DNA of 42,954 nt. Origin: Solirubrobacterales bacterium. Lineage in GTDB: Bacteria > Actinomycetota > Thermoleophilia > Solirubrobacterales > Solirubrobacteraceae. Location: contig JAOPZS010000119.1 of NCBI GenBank assembly GCA_025963965.1, positions 1 to 42,954 of the forward strand, in the 5' to 3' direction. The position numbers and the translations under genes are program-made. Positions 27,187-35,270 of the stretch are shown in pieces. The notes under the pieces are model-generated. The model made no database searches and was not told the DNA's origin. It saw only the letters and a program-made list of their open reading frames with translations. Positions within the stretch are counted from its first letter, which is position 1, and each line of letters opens with the position of its first letter.

Positions 27187-28353
27187 GTGATGGTCGGAAA
27201 CGACGAGATACGCAAGGCCCTCGAGGTCGTGATCGACCCGGAGCTGCACCGCTCGATCGTCGAGCTCGACATGGTGCGCTCGATCGACGCGAGCCCCAAC
27301 GGCGTGGTCGATGTGACGGTCTCGCTGACGACGCCGGGCTGCCCGATCAAGGGCCACTTCCAGACCTCCGTCGCCGACGCCGTCGCGAAGCTCGACGGCG
27401 TCACCCACGTCAACGTCTTCTTCGACGTCCTCTCGGACGAGCAGAAGTCGGCCCTACAGCAGAAGCTCGGGCGCGGCGCGCTGCCGGAGGGCTCGCTCGC
27501 GCAGGTCGCAAACGTGATCTGCGTCGGCTCGGGCAAGGGCGGCGTCTGCAAGTCCACCCTCACTGCGAACGTGGCCGCCGCGCTGTCGGCCGAGGGCAAG
27601 CGCGTCGGCGTGCTCGATGCGGATGTGTGGGGCTACTCGATCCCGCGGATGTACGGGCTCGGCGCGACGAGGCCGGCGGTCTCCCCGCAGCGAAAGATCA
27701 TCCCGCTCGAGTCGCACGGCGTGAAGGTCATGTCGATCGGCTTCTTCGTGGAGGAGGACGCCGCCGTCGTATGGCGCGGCCCGATGCTCCACAAGGCACT
27801 CACCCAGTTCCTGCAGGACGTCGAATGGGGCGTCCTGGACTACCTGCTCGTCGACCTGCCGCCCGGCACCGGCGACGTCTCGATGACGCTCGCGCAGCTG
27901 CTTCCCCAGGCACGCTTCCTGATCGTCACGACGCCCCAGCAGACGGCCCAGAAGGTCGCGCGCCGCGCCGCTCAGATGGCCGAGAAGGTCGACCTCCAGA
28001 TCTGCGGCGTGGTTGAGAACATGGCCGGCTTCACGACCCCCTCGGGGGAGCGCTTCGCGATCTTCGGCGAGGGCGGCGGCGTCGAGCTCGCCGACGAACT
28101 CGACGTGCCGCTGCTCGGTCGCGTGCCGCTGACGATGCCGCTGCGCGCCCAGGCCGACGCGGGCACGCCGCTCACGATCGAGGACCCCGACGACCCGGCC
28201 GCCCAGGCGATCCGCCAGACCGCCCGGGGCCTGATCGCGATCGCCCCGGTGCAGCTGCCCACGCTGCCCCTGGTCGAGGTCGTGCCGCCGGCTGCGCCGG
28301 CCGCTCCGGACGAGAGCCGGAAACCCGTGGGCATGTCGCTGCCGATGGCCTGA
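27187..28353 (+). CDS. mrp: Mrp/ApbC-type P-loop ATPase, iron-sulfur carrier, with altered Walker A
   Basis: A 388-residue Mrp/NBP35-family ATPase implicated in Fe-S cluster carriage. An N-terminal MIP18 (DUF59) domain (IRKALEVVIDPELHRSIVELDMV, TTPGCPIK) covers about residues 1-95. The SIMIBI ATPase follows with a deviant Walker A, GKGGV-Cys121-KST (normal GKGGVGKST), then VLDADVWGYSIPRM, LLVDLPPGTGDV and the IFGEGGG loop. The C-terminal CPxC pair that bridges clusters in ApbC/Nbp35 is absent (GVVENMAGFTTPSGERF), as I recall for other actinobacterial Mrp. The Gly-to-Cys change comes from TGC at 27547-27549. The frame is otherwise intact. Confidence 0.88.
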   Translation: MMVGNDEIRKALEVVIDPELHRSIVELDMVRSIDASPNGVVDVTVSLTTPGCPIKGHFQTSVADAVAKLDGVTHVNVFFDVLSDEQKSALQQKLGRGALPEGSLAQVANVICVGSGKGGVCKSTLTANVAAALSAEGKRVGVLDADVWGYSIPRMYGLGATRPAVSPQRKIIPLESHGVKVMSIGFFVEEDAAVVWRGPMLHKALTQFLQDVEWGVLDYLLVDLPPGTGDVSMTLAQLLPQARFLIVTTPQQTAQKVARRAAQMAEKVDLQICGVVENMAGFTTPSGERFAIFGEGGGVELADELDVPLLGRVPLTMPLRAQADAGTPLTIEDPDDPAAQAIRQTARGLIAIAPVQLPTLPLVEVVPPAAPAAPDESRKPVGMSLPMA

Positions 28354-28484: not shown

Positions 28485-30047
28485 ATGTCGACATCGGAGC
28501 AGGAGCACCCCATCAAGGGAGACGAGCAGGAGGACTCGTCCAAGCAGGCTGCCGCAGAGGCCGCCGAGGGCGGCGATGGCGTCGTCGAATTCGACGAACG
28601 CCGCGCGAAGATGGAACGGCTGCGGGCCGAGGGGATCGATCCCTATCCGGCCGTGTCGCTGTGGGGCAGACGCACCCGAGTCAGCGAGATCCTCGCGGCG
28701 CACGACCCGAGCGAGCTCGAGCCCGGCGCGCATCCGGAGATGCGCTACCTGATCGCCGGGCGGCTCGTCTCGCGACGTGGCCACGGCAAGACGGCGTTCC
28801 TGGACCTGCGCGACCTGTCCGGCTCGATCCAGGTCGTGCTGCGCGTCGACTCGCTCGGGCAGGAGACCTACGACCGGATCCTTGGACTCGACATCGGCGA
28901 CATCGTCTCGGTAGAGGGCTGCGTGTACGTGACCCAGCGCGGTCAGCTGGCGCTGGAGGCGGTCGAGTGCACGCTGTTGACCAAGACGCTGCGCCCGCCG
29001 CCCGACAAGCACCACGGGCTCGGCGACACGGGCACGCGCTACCGCTACCGCGAGCTCGACCTGATCGCAAACCAGGAGACGCGCGAGCTGTTCATCACGC
29101 GCAACAAGATCATCCTCTCGATCCGCGAATGGCTTGCCGAGCGCAACTTCACCGAGATCGAAACGCCGGCCCTGCAGTCACTCGCGGGCGGCGCCGGGTC
29201 GCGCCCGTTCACGACGCACCACAACGCGCTCGATCGCGATCTCTACCTGCGCATCTCCGTCGAGCTGTTTCTGAACCGCTGCATCGTCGGCGGCATGGAG
29301 AACGTCTACGACATGGGCAAGGTGTTCCGCAACGAGGGCATCTCGCCGAAGCACTCCCCCGAGTTCACGATCATCGAGTTCATGTGCGCGTACTCGGACT
29401 ACAACGACGTCGCCACGGTCACCGAAGAGATGTTCCGGGACGTCGCCCAGAAGGCGCTCGGGCGCACGGTCGTCAAACGAAACGGCGAAGAGATCGACCT
29501 GGCCAAGCCCTGGCGGCGCGTGACGATGCGGGAGCTGATCTTCGAGCGCTTCGGCCTGGACTTCATGGAGTCCACACGCGAGCAGCTCGCCGAGGTGCTC
29601 GACTCGCCGATCGACCCGAGCGCCACGTGGGCGGAGGTCGTCGCCGACATCTACTCCGAGAAAATCGAGTCGACGATCAACCAGCCGACGCACGTCTTCG
29701 ACTTCCCGCTGGAGCCGTTCCCGATCACCAAGCGCCACGCCGTGCACCCCGAGCTGGGTGAGCACTTCGATGCGGTCATCGGCGGCATCGAGCTGGTCAG
29801 CGGCGACACGGAGCTCAACGACCCGGTCGACCAGTGGCAGCGCTTCGTCGACCAGCGCAAGCGGCGCATGATCGACGACGAGGATGTGCCACATCCCAAC
29901 GACGAGGAGTACGCGCGCGCGATCGAGTACGGCTACGCGCCGACGGCCGGCGGCGGCATGGGTGTCGATCGCCTGGTGATGATCCTGACCGAACGCGACA
30001 CGCTCCGCGAGGTGATCCCGTTCCCGATCGTCAGAGACCTGCGATGA
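28485..30047 (+). CDS. class II lysyl-tRNA synthetase-like protein with altered lysine pocket
   Basis: A 520-residue protein with the full LysRS layout: an N-terminal OB-fold for the anticodon (about 70-175) and a class II catalytic core (about 180-520). Motif 2 is FRNEG at 281-285 and motif 3 is GMGVDRL at 491-497. The lysine-binding Glu residues are kept (Glu260, 298, 443 for E. coli 240, 278, 428). Met300, Ser439 and Asp441 replace E. coli Tyr280, Asn424 and Phe426, and nearby signatures differ (ELFLNRCIVGG, TAGGGMGVDR). It may be the normal LysRS of a divergent lineage, or a paralogue for another substrate. Its TGA overlaps the kamD ATG. I start at the ATG at 28485; an in-frame ATG at 28425 would add a basic extension. 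Confidence 0.85.
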   Translation: MSTSEQEHPIKGDEQEDSSKQAAAEAAEGGDGVVEFDERRAKMERLRAEGIDPYPAVSLWGRRTRVSEILAAHDPSELEPGAHPEMRYLIAGRLVSRRGHGKTAFLDLRDLSGSIQVVLRVDSLGQETYDRILGLDIGDIVSVEGCVYVTQRGQLALEAVECTLLTKTLRPPPDKHHGLGDTGTRYRYRELDLIANQETRELFITRNKIILSIREWLAERNFTEIETPALQSLAGGAGSRPFTTHHNALDRDLYLRISVELFLNRCIVGGMENVYDMGKVFRNEGISPKHSPEFTIIEFMCAYSDYNDVATVTEEMFRDVAQKALGRTVVKRNGEEIDLAKPWRRVTMRELIFERFGLDFMESTREQLAEVLDSPIDPSATWAEVVADIYSEKIESTINQPTHVFDFPLEPFPITKRHAVHPELGEHFDAVIGGIELVSGDTELNDPVDQWQRFVDQRKRRMIDDEDVPHPNDEEYARAIEYGYAPTAGGGMGVDRLVMILTERDTLREVIPFPIVRDLR

Positions 30048-31612
30048 GCACGCCCGGCTCGAAGCTCGGCCTCGACACGGGCGTGATCGCCGCCTGCCGC
30101 CAGGCGGCGCGCCGCATCGCCGACGACGTCGCCGAGCACATCTCCGGGCGCACGACCGTCTCGGTCGAGCGCAGCGTCACCCGGCTGCTCGGCGTCGACG
30201 GCGCCGACCAGCTCGAAGTGCCGCTGCCGAACGTGCTCGTCGACCACGTCCACGAGCGCGGCGGCCTCGACCGGGGCATCGCCCACTGGCTGGGCAACGC
30301 GATGCTCGCCGAAGGGCGCTCCCCGCAGCAGATCGCCGAGGCGGTCAGCGCCGGCGAGCTCGACCTGATGGCCCTCGAGCAGGCCGAGGAGGAGGCGATC
30401 CGCGAGCGCGTGCTTGCCGAGACGCGCACGCGCCTCACCGAGATCTCTCGCAAGTTCGACGAGCGGGCGGCAATTCGCGAGCGCCTCGGCGACTCCGGAG
30501 GGACGCTGCGCTACGTGCTGACTGCGACCGGTGACGTCTACGAGGACGTCGTGCACGCCAAGGCCGTCGCGCAGGCGGGCGGTGACATCGTCGCCGTGAT
30601 CCGCTCGACGGCGCAGAGCCTGCTCGACTACGTCCCGTACGGACCGACGACCGAGGGCTACGGGGGCACGTTCGCCACGCAGGCGAACTTCCGGATCATG
30701 CGCGAGGCGATGGACGAGTGGTCTGAGCAGCACGGCCGCTACATCCGCCTGTCGAGCTTCTGCTCCGGGCTGTGCATGTCGGAGATCGCCGCGATGGGCG
30801 CCTGGGAGGGGTTCGACAACATGGTCAACGACGCCCTCTACGGGATCCTCTACCGCGACATCAACATCGTCCGCGGCCTGATCGACCAGCGCGTCTCGCG
30901 GATGATCAACGGGCACTTCGGCGTCACGATCAACACGGGCGAGGACAACTACCTGCGCACCGCCGACGGGGTGGAGGCCGCGCCGTCCGTGACGGCGTCG
31001 CAGTTCATCAACCACCAGCTCGCTCGCGACTCGGGCGTGCCCGATGCGCAGATCGGCCTTGGCGACGCGTTCGAGATCGACGTTCCCGTGACCAACGGCT
31101 TCCTGTTCGAGCTAGCCCAGGCGCAGCTGACGCGCGAGCTGTTTCCCGACTGCCCCGTCAAGTACATGCCGCCGACGCGACACATGGACGGCAACCTGTT
31201 CCGGACGCACGCGGCCGACACGATGTTCAATCTCGTCACGATCGCCACGGGACAGGGGATCCAGACGATCGGCGTGCCGACCGAGGGGATCTTCACGCCG
31301 CACCTCCACGACCGCGTGCTCGGCCTGCAGAACGTCGACTACGTGTTCAACTCCGCGCGCGACCTCGGCGAGGAGATCGAGTTCAAGCAGGGAGGGATCA
31401 TCCAGACGCGCGCTCAGGACGTGCTGGGCGCAGCGCAGGAGCTGCTCGAGCGGATCGCCGAGCAGGGACTGTTCGCGGCGATCGAGCAGGCGACGTTCGG
31501 TGACGTCAGCCGCCGCGCCGACGAGGGTCGAGGCCTGGAGGGGATCGTGAGGACCGCCGACGGCTACCTGAATCCGCTCGTCGAGCTGATGGGGCAGGCC
31601 AGCTATGCCTAG
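30044..31612 (+). CDS. kamD: lysine 5,6-aminomutase alpha subunit
   Basis: Large subunit of the adenosylcobalamin- and PLP-dependent D-lysine/beta-lysine 5,6-aminomutase, which moves the terminal amino group from C6 to C5. The 522-residue protein has an N-terminal helical part (LDLMALEQAEEEAIRERVL), a TIM-barrel core (SLLDYVPYGPTTEGYGGTFATQANFRIMREAMDEW, SSFCSGLCMSEIAAMGAWEGFDNMVNDALYGILYRDIN) and a conserved C-terminal half (PVKYMPPTRHMDGNLFRTHAADTMFNLVTIATGQGIQ). Family length is about 515. ATG overlaps the LysRS-like stop by 4 nt (ATGA), and the 3' end overlaps kamE by 8 nt. The pathway genes of lysine fermentation are not nearby. Confidence 0.9.
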   Translation: MSTPGSKLGLDTGVIAACRQAARRIADDVAEHISGRTTVSVERSVTRLLGVDGADQLEVPLPNVLVDHVHERGGLDRGIAHWLGNAMLAEGRSPQQIAEAVSAGELDLMALEQAEEEAIRERVLAETRTRLTEISRKFDERAAIRERLGDSGGTLRYVLTATGDVYEDVVHAKAVAQAGGDIVAVIRSTAQSLLDYVPYGPTTEGYGGTFATQANFRIMREAMDEWSEQHGRYIRLSSFCSGLCMSEIAAMGAWEGFDNMVNDALYGILYRDINIVRGLIDQRVSRMINGHFGVTINTGEDNYLRTADGVEAAPSVTASQFINHQLARDSGVPDAQIGLGDAFEIDVPVTNGFLFELAQAQLTRELFPDCPVKYMPPTRHMDGNLFRTHAADTMFNLVTIATGQGIQTIGVPTEGIFTPHLHDRVLGLQNVDYVFNSARDLGEEIEFKQGGIIQTRAQDVLGAAQELLERIAEQGLFAAIEQATFGDVSRRADEGRGLEGIVRTADGYLNPLVELMGQASYA

Positions 31613-32378
31613 AGAGGTCGATCTCAGCGCGGTTCGCCCGTACGCCGACCACCTCGGCGACGGGCTCGTGCAGATGAGCTTCACGCTGCCCGTCCCGCAC
31701 TCGCTGGCGGCGCGCAAGGCCGCGCTCGAACTGGCCGCGAGCATGGGCTTCGAGGAGCCCGAGGTCGTGCACTACGAGGAGCTGACCGAGGGCTACACGT
31801 ACTTCGTGATGTACGGGCGCTGCGTGCGCACCGTCGACTTCGCCTCGCTGCAGGGCGAGGGCTTCGACATCGAGTACATGAGCGAGGACGAGATCGAGCG
31901 CTTCGCCGAGCGAAACCTCGGGCGCAGGATCATCGTCGTCGGGGCCAGCACCGGCTCGGACACGCACAGCGTCGGCATCGACGCGATGCTGAACCTGAAG
32001 GGCTACCACGGCCACCACGGGCTCGAGGGCTACCACTCCTTCGAGACCCACAACCTCGGCAGCCAGGTGCCCAACAGCGTGCTGCTGAGCAAGGCGATCG
32101 AGGTCAACGCCGACGCGATCCTCGTCTCCCAGACGGTCACCCAGCAGAACCTGCACGTGCACAACCTGACCGAGCTGGTCGAGATGGTCGAGGCGGAGGG
32201 GCGCCGCCACCAGCTGATCCTGGCCTGCGGCGGCCCGCGTGTGTCCAACGAGCTTGCCAAGGAGCTCGGCTACGACGCCGGCTTCTCCAAGGGCACGTAC
32301 CCGCACCACCTCGCGACGTTCATCGTCCGCGAGCTGGTCGCCCGGGAATCGGGCGACCGCGTCCCTGCGGCCGGCTGA
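31605..32378 (+). CDS. kamE: lysine 5,6-aminomutase beta subunit, B12-binding
   Basis: Small subunit that carries adenosylcobalamin and PLP. The 257-residue protein has an N-terminal dimerisation part (VQMSFTLPVP, EGYTYFVMYG) and a Rossmann-like B12 domain with VVGASTGSDTHSVGIDAMLNLKGYHG. The cobalt-ligand His is His121 in DTHSVG and the PLP Schiff-base Lys should be Lys132. Their spacing of 11 equals that of His133 and Lys144 in the Clostridium sticklandii enzyme. Further B12-domain motifs are ILVSQTVTQQNLHVHNLTE and ILACGGPRVSNELAKELGYDAGFSKGT. Active residues appear intact. Start overlaps kamD; the next gene begins 4 nt after the stop. Confidence 0.9.
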   Translation: MPREVDLSAVRPYADHLGDGLVQMSFTLPVPHSLAARKAALELAASMGFEEPEVVHYEELTEGYTYFVMYGRCVRTVDFASLQGEGFDIEYMSEDEIERFAERNLGRRIIVVGASTGSDTHSVGIDAMLNLKGYHGHHGLEGYHSFETHNLGSQVPNSVLLSKAIEVNADAILVSQTVTQQNLHVHNLTELVEMVEAEGRRHQLILACGGPRVSNELAKELGYDAGFSKGTYPHHLATFIVRELVARESGDRVPAAG

Positions 32379-32382
32379 GCCG

Positions 32383-33501
32383 TTGGCGACGCTCGCCGAG
32401 CTGACCGCACCTGCTCGCCGCCTCGCGCTCGTCGGGCTCGCCAAGAACACCGGCAAGACCGTCACGTTGGCGGCGCTCCTGGCCGAGCTGGCGCAGGCCG
32501 GCAGGACGGTCGGCGTGACGTCGGTCGGGCGCGACGGGGAGGAGCACGACGTGATCGACTTTCGCATCGACAAGCCGCCCGTGCAGCTCGGCGCCGGCGC
32601 GTTCGTCGCGACCACGGACGGGCTGCTGCGGGCGAGCGGCGTGCCCCACGAGCTGCTCGAGCGGACCGCGATTCGCACGCCGCTCGGTGAAGTGCTGATC
32701 GCGCGCCTGAAGGGCGCGGGCACGATCGAGGTCGCAGGGCCCTCGGCCGCCGTCGACGCGCGCCGCGTCGCCGACGCGATGCTCGGACACGGCGCCGAGC
32801 AGGTCCTGATCGACGGTGCGATCGACCGCCGCGCGGCGTCCTCGCCGGACGTCGCCGACGGGCTCGTGATGTCGACCGGCGCGATCCTCAGCGAGGACCT
32901 CGGCGAGATCGTGCAGCGCACCGCCGATGCCGTCGCTCTTGTGCAGCTCGACGCCCTCGACGTGAGCACCGGGGAGGGCCGGCGCGTGCGGGAACTGGCC
33001 GAGAAGCTCGAGCCGAGCGTCAGCCTGATGCTCGACGAGGACCTGGTCGAGCACGCGCTGCCGCCGCGCTTCGCGCTGACCGCCGAGCCGCCCGCGATCG
33101 CCGATCTCCTGCGCCGCGTCGGCTCACCGCGCTGGCTGCTGATCTCAGGCGCGCTGCCCGAGGCGTTCCTCGAGGGGCTGATCCCGCTGGCGCGCCGCCG
33201 CAGGGAGCCGCTGAAAGTGCTCGCCTCGGACCCCACGAGGGTGTTCGTCTCCAAGCACGGGCCTTCCCACTACCTGAAGGCCGGCATCGAGTTGCGCGTG
33301 CTGAGGCCGATTGGCCTGCTCGCCCTGACCGTCAACCCGGTGGCGCCGCAGTCGCACTCCTTCGACTCGGCGCGGATGCGCGCGCTGCTCGGCGAGGTCA
33401 TCCACGACGTGCCGATCTTCGACGTGATGCATCCCTCCTACACGGGCTCGCCGCCGTCGATGCCGCGCGCGCCGGCCGGCCTCCCGGGAGCCCCCGGCTA
33501 G
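32383..33501 (+). CDS. P-loop protein resembling aminomutase reactivase subunit KamB
   Basis: A 372-residue protein with Walker A GLAKNTGKT at residues 18-26, followed by TVGVTSVGRDGEEHD, IRTPLGEVLIARL and EVAGPSAAVDARRVADAMLGHGAEQVLIDGAIDR. The IGxxKNxGKT...TSxGRDGE pattern is the one I recall for KamB, a proposed ATP-dependent reactivation partner of lysine 5,6-aminomutase; recall only, not searched. Position directly after kamE supports this, since B12 radical mutases commonly need chaperones. The usual MutS-like partner KamC is not adjacent. TTG start 4 nt after the kamE stop. It ends convergent with a small gene, sharing stop bases. Confidence 0.65.
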   Translation: MATLAELTAPARRLALVGLAKNTGKTVTLAALLAELAQAGRTVGVTSVGRDGEEHDVIDFRIDKPPVQLGAGAFVATTDGLLRASGVPHELLERTAIRTPLGEVLIARLKGAGTIEVAGPSAAVDARRVADAMLGHGAEQVLIDGAIDRRAASSPDVADGLVMSTGAILSEDLGEIVQRTADAVALVQLDALDVSTGEGRRVRELAEKLEPSVSLMLDEDLVEHALPPRFALTAEPPAIADLLRRVGSPRWLLISGALPEAFLEGLIPLARRRREPLKVLASDPTRVFVSKHGPSHYLKAGIELRVLRPIGLLALTVNPVAPQSHSFDSARMRALLGEVIHDVPIFDVMHPSYTGSPPSMPRAPAGLPGAPG

Positions 33502-34982: not shown

Positions 34983-35270
34983 TCAGCCGGTGGCGGCGGC
35001 GCCGCCGCCGCCGGAGGCGAAGTAGTCGGCGTTGATCTGCGTGTACCTCTGCCACTCGTCCGGGAGCTGGTCCTCGGCAAAGCAGGCGTCCACCGGGCAC
35101 GCCTCGACGCAGGCATCGCAGTCGATGCACTCCTCCGGGTCGATGTAGAGCATCTCGGCCGCGTCGTATCCGGGCTCGTCGGGCGTCGGGTGGATGCAAT
35201 CCACGGGGCACACCTCGACACAGGAGTTGTCCTTGGTGCCAATGCACGGCTCGGCGATTACGTAGGCCAT
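34983..35270 (-). CDS. fdxA: 7Fe ferredoxin ([3Fe-4S][4Fe-4S])
   Basis: Small electron carrier of the actinobacterial FdxA type. The 95-residue protein has Cys9-x7-Cys17-x3-Cys21-x3-Cys25 and Cys48-x2-Cys51-x2-Cys54-x3-Cys58-Pro. The spacing equals that of Azotobacter ferredoxin I, where the wider first motif gives a 3Fe-4S cluster. The acidic middle region and the DEWQRYTQINADYF tail are typical. An extra Cys63 follows the second cluster. A Gly/Ala tail ends the protein. The ribosome-binding site is A-rich and weak. It is a single gene, divergent from the epimerase gene. Confidence 0.94.
   Translation of the reverse strand: MAYVIAEPCIGTKDNSCVEVCPVDCIHPTPDEPGYDAAEMLYIDPEECIDCDACVEACPVDACFAEDQLPDEWQRYTQINADYFASGGGGAAATG

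What the first reader, a model, noticed from the sequence alone, without database searches (positions are those of the whole stretch)
28485..33501. LysRS-like enzyme translationally fused to a lysine 5,6-aminomutase operon
Seen: the class II LysRS-like gene, kamD, kamE and a KamB-like P-loop gene are joined by a 4-nt overlap (ATGA), an 8-nt overlap and a 4-nt gap. Known: lysine 5,6-aminomutase (adenosylcobalamin/PLP) acts on D-lysine or L-beta-lysine in anaerobic lysine fermentation. Here none of the other fermentation genes (kamA, kdd, kce, kal) is nearby. Inference: the mutase product, or its substrate, may be activated by the synthetase-like protein, giving a modified tRNA, a lipid or peptide aminoacylation, or a small metabolite. 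A housekeeping alternative is simple lysine-linked co-regulation.
Basis: partly seen in the sequence, partly recalled or inferred. Interest (0 to 1): 0.85.

Follow-up and report, generated by a model that had tools for sequence, protein, structure and literature searches.

The report
Second lysine-tRNA synthetase with rebuilt pocket
A bacterium carries, beside its normal lysine-loading enzyme, a second one whose lysine pocket has been rebuilt and whose gene is joined to those of a vitamin B12 enzyme that turns lysine into an isomer, so it probably activates that unusual amino acid and perhaps loads it onto tRNA.

Summary
The genome has a separate ordinary LysRS. In the LysRS-like protein ("LysP") both aromatic residues that sandwich lysine in solved LysRS (E. 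coli Y280, F426) are Met and Asp, while ATP-site and catalytic residues and the anticodon domain are kept. All 14 copies linked to kamDE, from 12 genomes, have Met280/Asp426. A sister subtype with Leu280/Asp426 (7 copies) occurs only in genomes with a diaminobutyrate-aminotransferase-like gene, next to it in 6. Of 24 genus genomes, 12 have kamD, each with the Met280 type; 8 have the aminotransferase: 7 with Leu280, one (G092) with Glu280. In three genomes of two other genera kamDEB stands beside an ArgRS paralog. Best reading: LysP activates the diamino acid its partner makes (here 2,5-diaminohexanoate, an isomer of lysine) and probably charges tRNA(Lys). Its use is unknown; MprF and FemAB were not found. 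Activity is inferred, not shown.

The parts
28485..30047 (+). LysP: full-length class II LysRS paralog (OB-fold anticodon domain + catalytic domain) with rebuilt lysine pocket (LysU positions A238S, Y280M, S397F, N424S, F426D)
30044..31612 (+). kamD, lysine 5,6-aminomutase alpha subunit; in a clade with ArgX-linked and Micromonospora copies, apart from the 18 other KamDs compared
31605..32378 (+). kamE, lysine 5,6-aminomutase beta subunit; cobalamin motif DxHxxG (D119, H121, G124) and K132 (PLP lysine, role recalled) kept
32383..33501 (+). kamB, P-loop reactivase subunit of 5,6-aminomutase, TTG start
30044..30047 (+). ATGA stop/start overlap LysP-kamD; the same 4-nt overlap in 10 of 12 kamD-bearing genus genomes (own included)
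27187..28353 (+). Mrp/ApbC-type Fe-S carrier; also upstream of LysP in four genomes where the aminotransferase follows LysP; probably only a syntenic neighbour
34983..35270 (-). 4Fe-4S ferredoxin; conserved downstream neighbour, probably only syntenic

Best explanation
The four genes are a unit that makes and activates a non-canonical diamino acid. KamDE (AdoCbl + PLP), kept active by KamB, moves the terminal amino group of lysine from C6 to C5, giving 2,5-diaminohexanoate, an isomer of lysine with the same mass. LysP, a duplicated LysRS, adenylates this product instead of lysine: the aromatic clamp on the lysine side chain is replaced by Met280 (next to the new C6 methyl) and Asp426 (a new carboxylate for the amino group now on C5), while the acids that hold the alpha-amino group and the ATP site stay. 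Because the anticodon domain and most of its U35/U36-reading residues are kept, LysP most likely passes the amino acid to tRNA(Lys). Shown: gene structure, families, conservation, pocket residues, co-occurrence and change of partner. Inferred: substrate identity, stereochemistry, tRNA transfer. Unknown: what consumes the product.
For: (1) An ordinary LysRS is present in addition in the 8 LysP-bearing genus genomes examined for it. (2) 20 of 20 ordinary LysRS rows have A238, Y280, S397, N424, F426; 12 of 12 kam-linked LysP rows have S, M, F, S, D; G216, E240, R262, E264, E278, E428, R480 are kept. Published structures place these: lysine's chain stacks between human Y341 and Y499, epsilon-amino on E501, alpha-amino on E339/E301 (PMC11878792, passages); the same five-residue clamp with Glu301 and Glu501 at the epsilon-amino group in PMC11789599 (passages). 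PMC8251883 (passages) equates its Glu529 with E. coli Glu428 and its Arg581 with Arg480; that these are E501 and R553 of the shorter numbering is my inference from the constant difference of 28, which makes Y499 = F426; Y341 = Y280 by constant offset from R323 = R262. (3) Position 280 goes with the partner: M in 14 of 14 kamDE-linked copies, L in 7 of 7 copies of the subtype found with the aminotransferase. (4) kamD in 12 of 24 genus genomes, all with the M280 type in the same cluster; the aminotransferase in 8 of 24, the 7 with L280 plus G092 (E280); G035 holds both pairs. (5) The change can be in place: Mrp stands upstream of LysP in G099, G570, G573 and G579 as in the window, with the aminotransferase after LysP; downstream synteny is fully shared only in G099. 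(6) kamDEB of G030, G045 and G054 stands beside another aaRS paralog, ArgRS-like (PF00750 over, TIGR00456 under cut-off in those scanned). (7) Anticodon-domain identity between kam-linked LysP and ordinary LysRS is 47%, catalytic domain 48%; R78, F85, Q96 kept in 19 of 19 LysP rows. [quoted passage not shown] no 2,3-aminomutase was found to supply beta-lysine.
Against: No activity is shown. TIGR00499 and NF001756 score LysP above the curated LysRS cut-off. No dedicated tRNA: 41 tRNA hits in the own draft genome include one tRNA-Lys(UUU) and one (CUU) only, so a wrongly charged tRNA(Lys) would threaten translation unless consumed. Glu135 of LysU, the probable equivalent of human E195 that helps read U35/U36, is Gln in 11 of 12 kam-linked rows and Gly in one, so tRNA reading may have changed. 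The match of residue and partner rests on few evolutionary events: the 12 main kam-linked rows are one clade, the 2 rows of the second kam clusters another, and their order relative to the L280 rows is unresolved (only 2 of the 7 L280 rows were in that tree). Position 280 is not the only fixed kam/L280 difference: six others were listed. In G035 and G092 the aminotransferase is on another contig. Three genomes (G030, G045, G054) have kamDEB without LysP. Most genomes are drafts in many contigs.
Confidence: 0.62

Rival explanations
1. tRNA-independent ligase: LysP (and ArgX) only adenylate the diamino acid and hand it to a small molecule, carrier or protein in a specialised-metabolite pathway.
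For: Several ArgX copies lie in biosynthetic-looking loci (aminodeoxychorismate/anthranilate synthase fusion, P450, ATP-grasp dapdiamide-synthase-like ligase, methyltransferases); the KamD clade also includes a Micromonospora copy in an NRPS neighbourhood.
Against: LysP's anticodon domain is hardly more diverged than its catalytic domain and keeps R78/F85/Q96; H270 and E264, offset equivalents of the human C75 and C74 contacts, are kept. None of the 20 window neighbours scanned is an NRPS or an ATP-grasp ligase.
Confidence: 0.2
2. Self-resistance or back-up LysRS: LysP still charges lysine but excludes a toxic lysine isomer made by KamDE.
For: Second aaRS copies that give resistance are common beside pathways for aaRS inhibitors (recalled); LysP passes LysRS family cut-offs.
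Against: Both aromatic clamps that hold lysine are gone, though invariant in 20 of 20 ordinary rows; the pocket differs with the kind of partner enzyme rather than keeping a lysine site.
Confidence: 0.12
3. Protein-modifying enzyme like EpmA: LysP attaches the amino acid to a protein such as EF-P.
For: EpmA/EpmB is a known LysRS-paralog plus lysine-aminomutase pair; LysP shares Ser at position 238 with EpmA.
Against: EpmA lacks the anticodon domain (PMC2821294, section 7) and LysP keeps it; EpmA scores are under cut-off (TIGR00462 167.6/286.9); E. coli EpmA keeps Y280 and F426; no EpmB relative over cut-off in 12 genomes. EF-P of this genome was not examined.
Confidence: 0.06

Closest known systems
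EpmA (PoxA/GenX) with EpmB: LysRS paralog plus lysine 2,3-aminomutase
   Same: A LysRS paralog is paired with a lysine aminomutase; Ser at position 238 in both.
   Different: The mutase is the B12/PLP 5,6 enzyme, not the 2,3 enzyme; LysP is full length with anticodon domain; pocket changes at 280, 424 and 426 are not in E. coli EpmA.
Class II lysyl-tRNA synthetase (LysS/LysU)
   Same: Domains, ATP site, catalytic residues, family score.
   Different: Both aromatic lysine clamps replaced; exists beside an ordinary LysRS; its own group in the tree (100/98 support).
PylRS with PylBCD (recalled)
   Same: Dedicated class II aaRS encoded with enzymes that make its amino acid from lysine.
   Different: No dedicated tRNA found in the draft genome; the aaRS is a LysRS duplicate of this bacterial order.
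LysX (LysRS fused to MprF)
   Same: Also a second LysRS-derived protein; long LysRS reading frames of about 1000-1200 aa in the same family look like it (fusion not checked by domain search).
   Different: No MprF domain in LysP; PF09924 absent from all 9 genus genomes examined.
Lysine fermentation kam operon
   Same: KamD, KamE, KamB and KamE's cobalamin and PLP residues.
   Different: No KamA found; KamD in a separate clade (100/100) with ArgX-linked and Micromonospora copies.

Membership tests
Class II LysRS (canonical) | OB-fold anticodon domain plus class II catalytic domain | tested here: met
   PF01336 and PF00152 over cut-off
Class II LysRS (canonical) | aromatic pair clamping the lysine side chain (LysU Y280, F426) | tested here: not met
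   Y280M, F426D; 20 of 20 ordinary rows keep Y and F
Class II LysRS (canonical) | activates L-lysine and charges tRNA(Lys) | not testable with these tools
   needs enzyme assay
EpmA | catalytic core only, no anticodon domain | tested here: not met
   OB fold present; TIGR00462 167.6 bits against cut-off 286.9
EpmA | partner lysine 2,3-aminomutase EpmB | tested here: not met
   TIGR00238 over cut-off in 0 of 12 genomes; no match at all in the own draft genome
LysX | fused MprF (LPG synthase) domain | tested here: not met
Lysine 5,6-aminomutase | alpha and beta subunits over curated cut-offs; cobalamin motif and PLP lysine | tested here: met
   (20 of 20 KamE rows share D119, H121, G124, K132; the role of K132 is recalled)
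Lysine 5,6-aminomutase reactivase | KamB over cut-off | tested here: met
Lysine 5,6-aminomutase reactivase | second subunit KamC (recalled) | not tested
   not seen among the scanned window proteins; not searched genome-wide
Orthogonal aaRS/tRNA pair (PylRS-like) | dedicated extra tRNA | tested here: inconclusive
   41 tRNA hits, no extra lysine-like or suppressor tRNA, but the draft is 89.7% complete and tRNA-Cys is also missing from the list

The most novel reading that the evidence does not exclude
LysP charges tRNA(Lys) with 2,5-diaminohexanoate and this isomer enters proteins at some lysine codons: a naturally encoded, B12-dependent substitution that ordinary mass spectrometry would miss because it is isobaric with lysine. 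Sister genomes would do the same with a second diamino acid made by the aminotransferase.
Probability: 0.12. Interest if true: 0.95.

Novelty: new variant of a known kind. Interest (0 to 1): 0.8.

Why it matters
Aminoacyl-tRNA synthetases dedicated to an amino acid outside the standard set are few. Here a LysRS duplicate appears to have been retuned more than once, with different enzymes that make diamino acids, which gives a natural series (Tyr, Met, Leu, Glu at one pocket position; Phe, Asp, Ser at the other) for testing how synthetase specificity evolves. If the product is loaded on tRNA, there is an unknown use of a non-canonical aminoacyl-tRNA in a genus of Solirubrobacteraceae. Because LysP passes the curated LysRS cut-offs, automatic annotation would call it plain lysS, so it is easy to overlook.

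Tried and rejected
Ordinary duplicate LysRS: weakened by the pocket. MprF/LPG route: PF09924 in 0 of 9 genus genomes and in 1 of 12 in all (G054). FemAB (peptidoglycan aminoacyl-tRNA route): PF02388 in 0 of 12; this model rang in only 3 of 14 control genomes, so it is a narrow test. EpmA/EpmB. Dedicated tRNA: none seen. Reassignment of AAA: in 12 window genes against G014, 7 of 9 AAA codons face Lys, AAG 75 of 86, so no sign of it, small sample. RNA elements: no Rfam hit at gathering score in the window. AlphaFold model of LysP with a 12-row alignment was poor (mean pLDDT 50.9; about 80-90 over most of the OB fold); I did not use it for fold searches. Phylum-wide KamD: 21 of 396 genomes, own included; the other 20 lie at 45-51% (full length or fragments) or are distant matches of 28-30%; whether a LysRS stands beside them was not examined. 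A class II hit beside KamD in Pseudothermotoga (L096) has a GAD domain, as AspRS has. A second LysRS in family f2 with another pocket was seen but not followed. Papers: ('6-aminomutase' with 'tRNA synthetase') found 0; one search used a phrase that cannot match the comma; the listings (15 of 25 shown) show none on this theme by title; nchembio.632 is not held, so a role of the A-to-S change in accepting beta-lysine is recalled only. Slip: the 'ordinary' list wrongly held G092_solo (21 rows), which touches the 47/48% identities; the residue counts quoted come (20 rows).

Full report
OBSERVATION. NCBIfam names them lysine--tRNA ligase, 5,6-aminomutase alpha, beta, and reactivase KamB, all over the curated cut-offs. 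No tRNA and no Rfam family at gathering score lie in the window.

ANOTHER LYSRS. The own genome (draft, 3.03 Mb in 147 contigs, 89.7% complete) has a second LysRS on another contig, 44% identical. In a sample of 101 genomes of the family, the 9 of the genus (own included) all have an ordinary LysRS; 8 of these 9 have a relative of the window protein, G050 has none. I call the window protein LysP. In a tree of 41 rows rooted on E. coli EpmA (a very long branch), LysP (12 rows from main kam clusters, 2 from second kam clusters with ArgX, G035's second copy, G099) is one group (100/98), with G092 and then G020 next to it (100/99 each), apart from ordinary LysRS; the 12 kam rows are one group (100/100), the 2 ArgX-side rows another (100/100), and the order of these and the L280 pair is unresolved.

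THE POCKET. Against E. coli LysU (numbering without the initiator Met, in which E428 and R480 fall on Glu and Arg as in the literature), 20 of 20 ordinary rows have A238, Y280, S397, N424 and F426. The 12 kam-linked rows all have S238, M280, F397, S424 and D426. G216, E240, R262, E264, H270, E278, E428 and R480 stay. Six kam-linked rows and three of the other subtype were re-read from separately fetched loci with the same result. In human LysRS the lysine chain stacks between Y341 and Y499, its epsilon-amino group meets E501, and E339/E301 hold the alpha-amino group (PMC11878792, passages); PMC11789599 (passages) puts Glu301 and Glu501 and the two tyrosines around the epsilon-amino group. PMC8251883 (passages) equates Glu529/Arg581 with E. 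coli Glu428/Arg480; read as E501/R553 in the shorter numbering (my inference, difference of 28), Y499 is F426. Y341 is Y280 by constant offset within motif 2. LysP has thus lost both aromatic clamps and gained a carboxylate, while keeping the acids.

CHANGE OF PARTNER. In G099 the locus Mrp-LysP-X-ferredoxin-epimerase-amidase is syntenic with the window, but kamDEB is gone and X is a class III aminotransferase close to diaminobutyrate--2-oxoglutarate transaminases, under their cut-offs (NF005393 483.4 bits, cut-off 671; TIGR00709 395.5, cut-off 401.6). The LysP-aminotransferase pair was also found in G569, G573 and G579, in G578 (75 nt apart) and, at a contig end, in G570. Mrp stands upstream in G099, G570, G573 and G579; downstream synteny is whole only in G099, partial in G573. 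All 7 copies of this subtype (these six and G035's second copy) have L280 with S424/D426.

CO-OCCURRENCE. In the 24 genomes of the genus, kamD is present in 12, always in one cluster with an M280-type LysP: 14 copies, since G083 and G571 have two. An aminotransferase of 69-100% identity is in 8: the 7 genomes with L280 LysP and G092, whose LysP has E280/S424/S426 (next to LysP in 6, on other contigs in G035 and G092). A match of 46% in G571 is not counted. G035 holds both pairs. The five genomes without a LysP match at E 1e-140, leaving G092 aside (G050, G568, G580, G581, G582), have neither gene; four of these are under 90% complete. Fisher tests give 7e-7 and 1e-6, but the genomes are related and the subtypes are few groups, so these are not independent events. 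Besides 280, six other positions differ in a fixed way between the kam and L280 rows.

OTHER GENERA. KamD is in 9 of 101 family genomes, own included. Three of them (G030, G045, G054; two genera) lack LysP; there kamDEB lies beside an ArgRS paralog, ArgX. In G083 and G571 the second kam cluster has both: ArgX divergent from kamD-kamE-LysP, with kamB before LysP in G571. ArgX keeps an HxGH signature in 9 of 11 aligned copies (HAGY in the other two, both kam-linked) and a degenerate KMSK region; other copies lie among biosynthetic-type genes. KamD linked to LysP, to ArgX, and a copy in Micromonospora matsumotoense beside an NRPS form one group (100/100) apart from 18 other KamDs. KamE keeps the cobalamin motif and K132 in 20 of 20 rows.

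tRNA. The anticodon domain is 47% identical between kam-linked LysP and ordinary LysRS, the catalytic domain 48% (one wrong row among the 21 ordinary ones); R78, F85 and Q96 are kept in 19 of 19 LysP rows, R77 in the 12 kam rows. Human R136, F144, Q155 and E195 read U35 and U36; by offset the first three are R77, F85 and Q96. The probable E195 equivalent is Gln in 11 of 12 kam rows and Gly in one. The own genome shows one tRNA-Lys(UUU), one (CUU) and no extra lysine-like tRNA among 41 hits; tRNA-Cys is missing, so the set is incomplete. A tRNA role is therefore likely but shared with translation, which needs a consumer or tolerance.

MECHANISM. [quoted passage not shown] no 2,3-aminomutase was found, so lysine itself is the likely substrate and 2,5-diaminohexanoate the product. 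It has a methyl at C6 and its amino group on C5, which fits Met280 and Asp426. The aminotransferase would make 2,4-diaminobutyrate or a similar diamino acid (inferred from family), again with the side-chain amine nearer the backbone than in lysine, and again with Asp426. What uses the activated amino acid is unknown; MprF is absent from the 9 genus genomes and FemAB from all 12 searched.

PRINT. In the held library no paper has both '6-aminomutase' and 'tRNA synthetase', though 20 papers have '6-aminomutase' with lysine and adenosylcobalamin. Most subscription papers are not held.

VERDICT. A LysRS paralog with a rebuilt pocket, tied to a lysine mutase in one subtype and to a diamino-acid aminotransferase in another. 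In principle it works like EpmA/EpmB but is not a member of that family.

Noticed in passing
L059:1501-1597 (G000:C119:24352-24447): A tRNA that ARAGORN could not name looks by eye like tRNA-Glu(TTC) with an extra hairpin of about 18 nt in the D-loop; no other Glu(TTC) among the 41 tRNA hits.
   Followed up: no
L200-L207 and L212: In family f2 a LysRS copy has yet another pocket (F280, W397, G424, G426, D428 in 9 of 9 rows). In L200 and L202 a PrmC-like methyltransferase stands beside it (Pfam); L201, L204 and L212 have the same gene by BLAST. A third possible specificity change.
   Followed up: partly
L131-L143: ArgRS-like paralogs (ArgX) recur in Solirubrobacteraceae; several lie beside aminodeoxychorismate/anthranilate synthase fusions, P450s, methyltransferases or ATP-grasp ligases, and five loci share a protein of about 210 aa without Pfam hit (L140:3852-4484).
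   Followed up: partly
L091:9917-13390: Micromonospora matsumotoense DSM 44100 has kamDEB (KamD 68%) near an NRPS, a P450 and a FkbM methyltransferase: perhaps a new amino-acid building block.
   Followed up: partly
L031:8875-10266: Reverse transcriptase with weak similarity to antiviral Drt4/Drt5 (38 and 28 bits, far under cut-off), near the second LysP copy of G035.
   Followed up: no
L034:9458-11110: G020 has a LysP-like LysRS with F280, S424, S426 and D428 and, besides, only a long LysRS reading frame (1190 aa, LysX-like, fusion not checked): which of them charges lysine is open.
   Followed up: no
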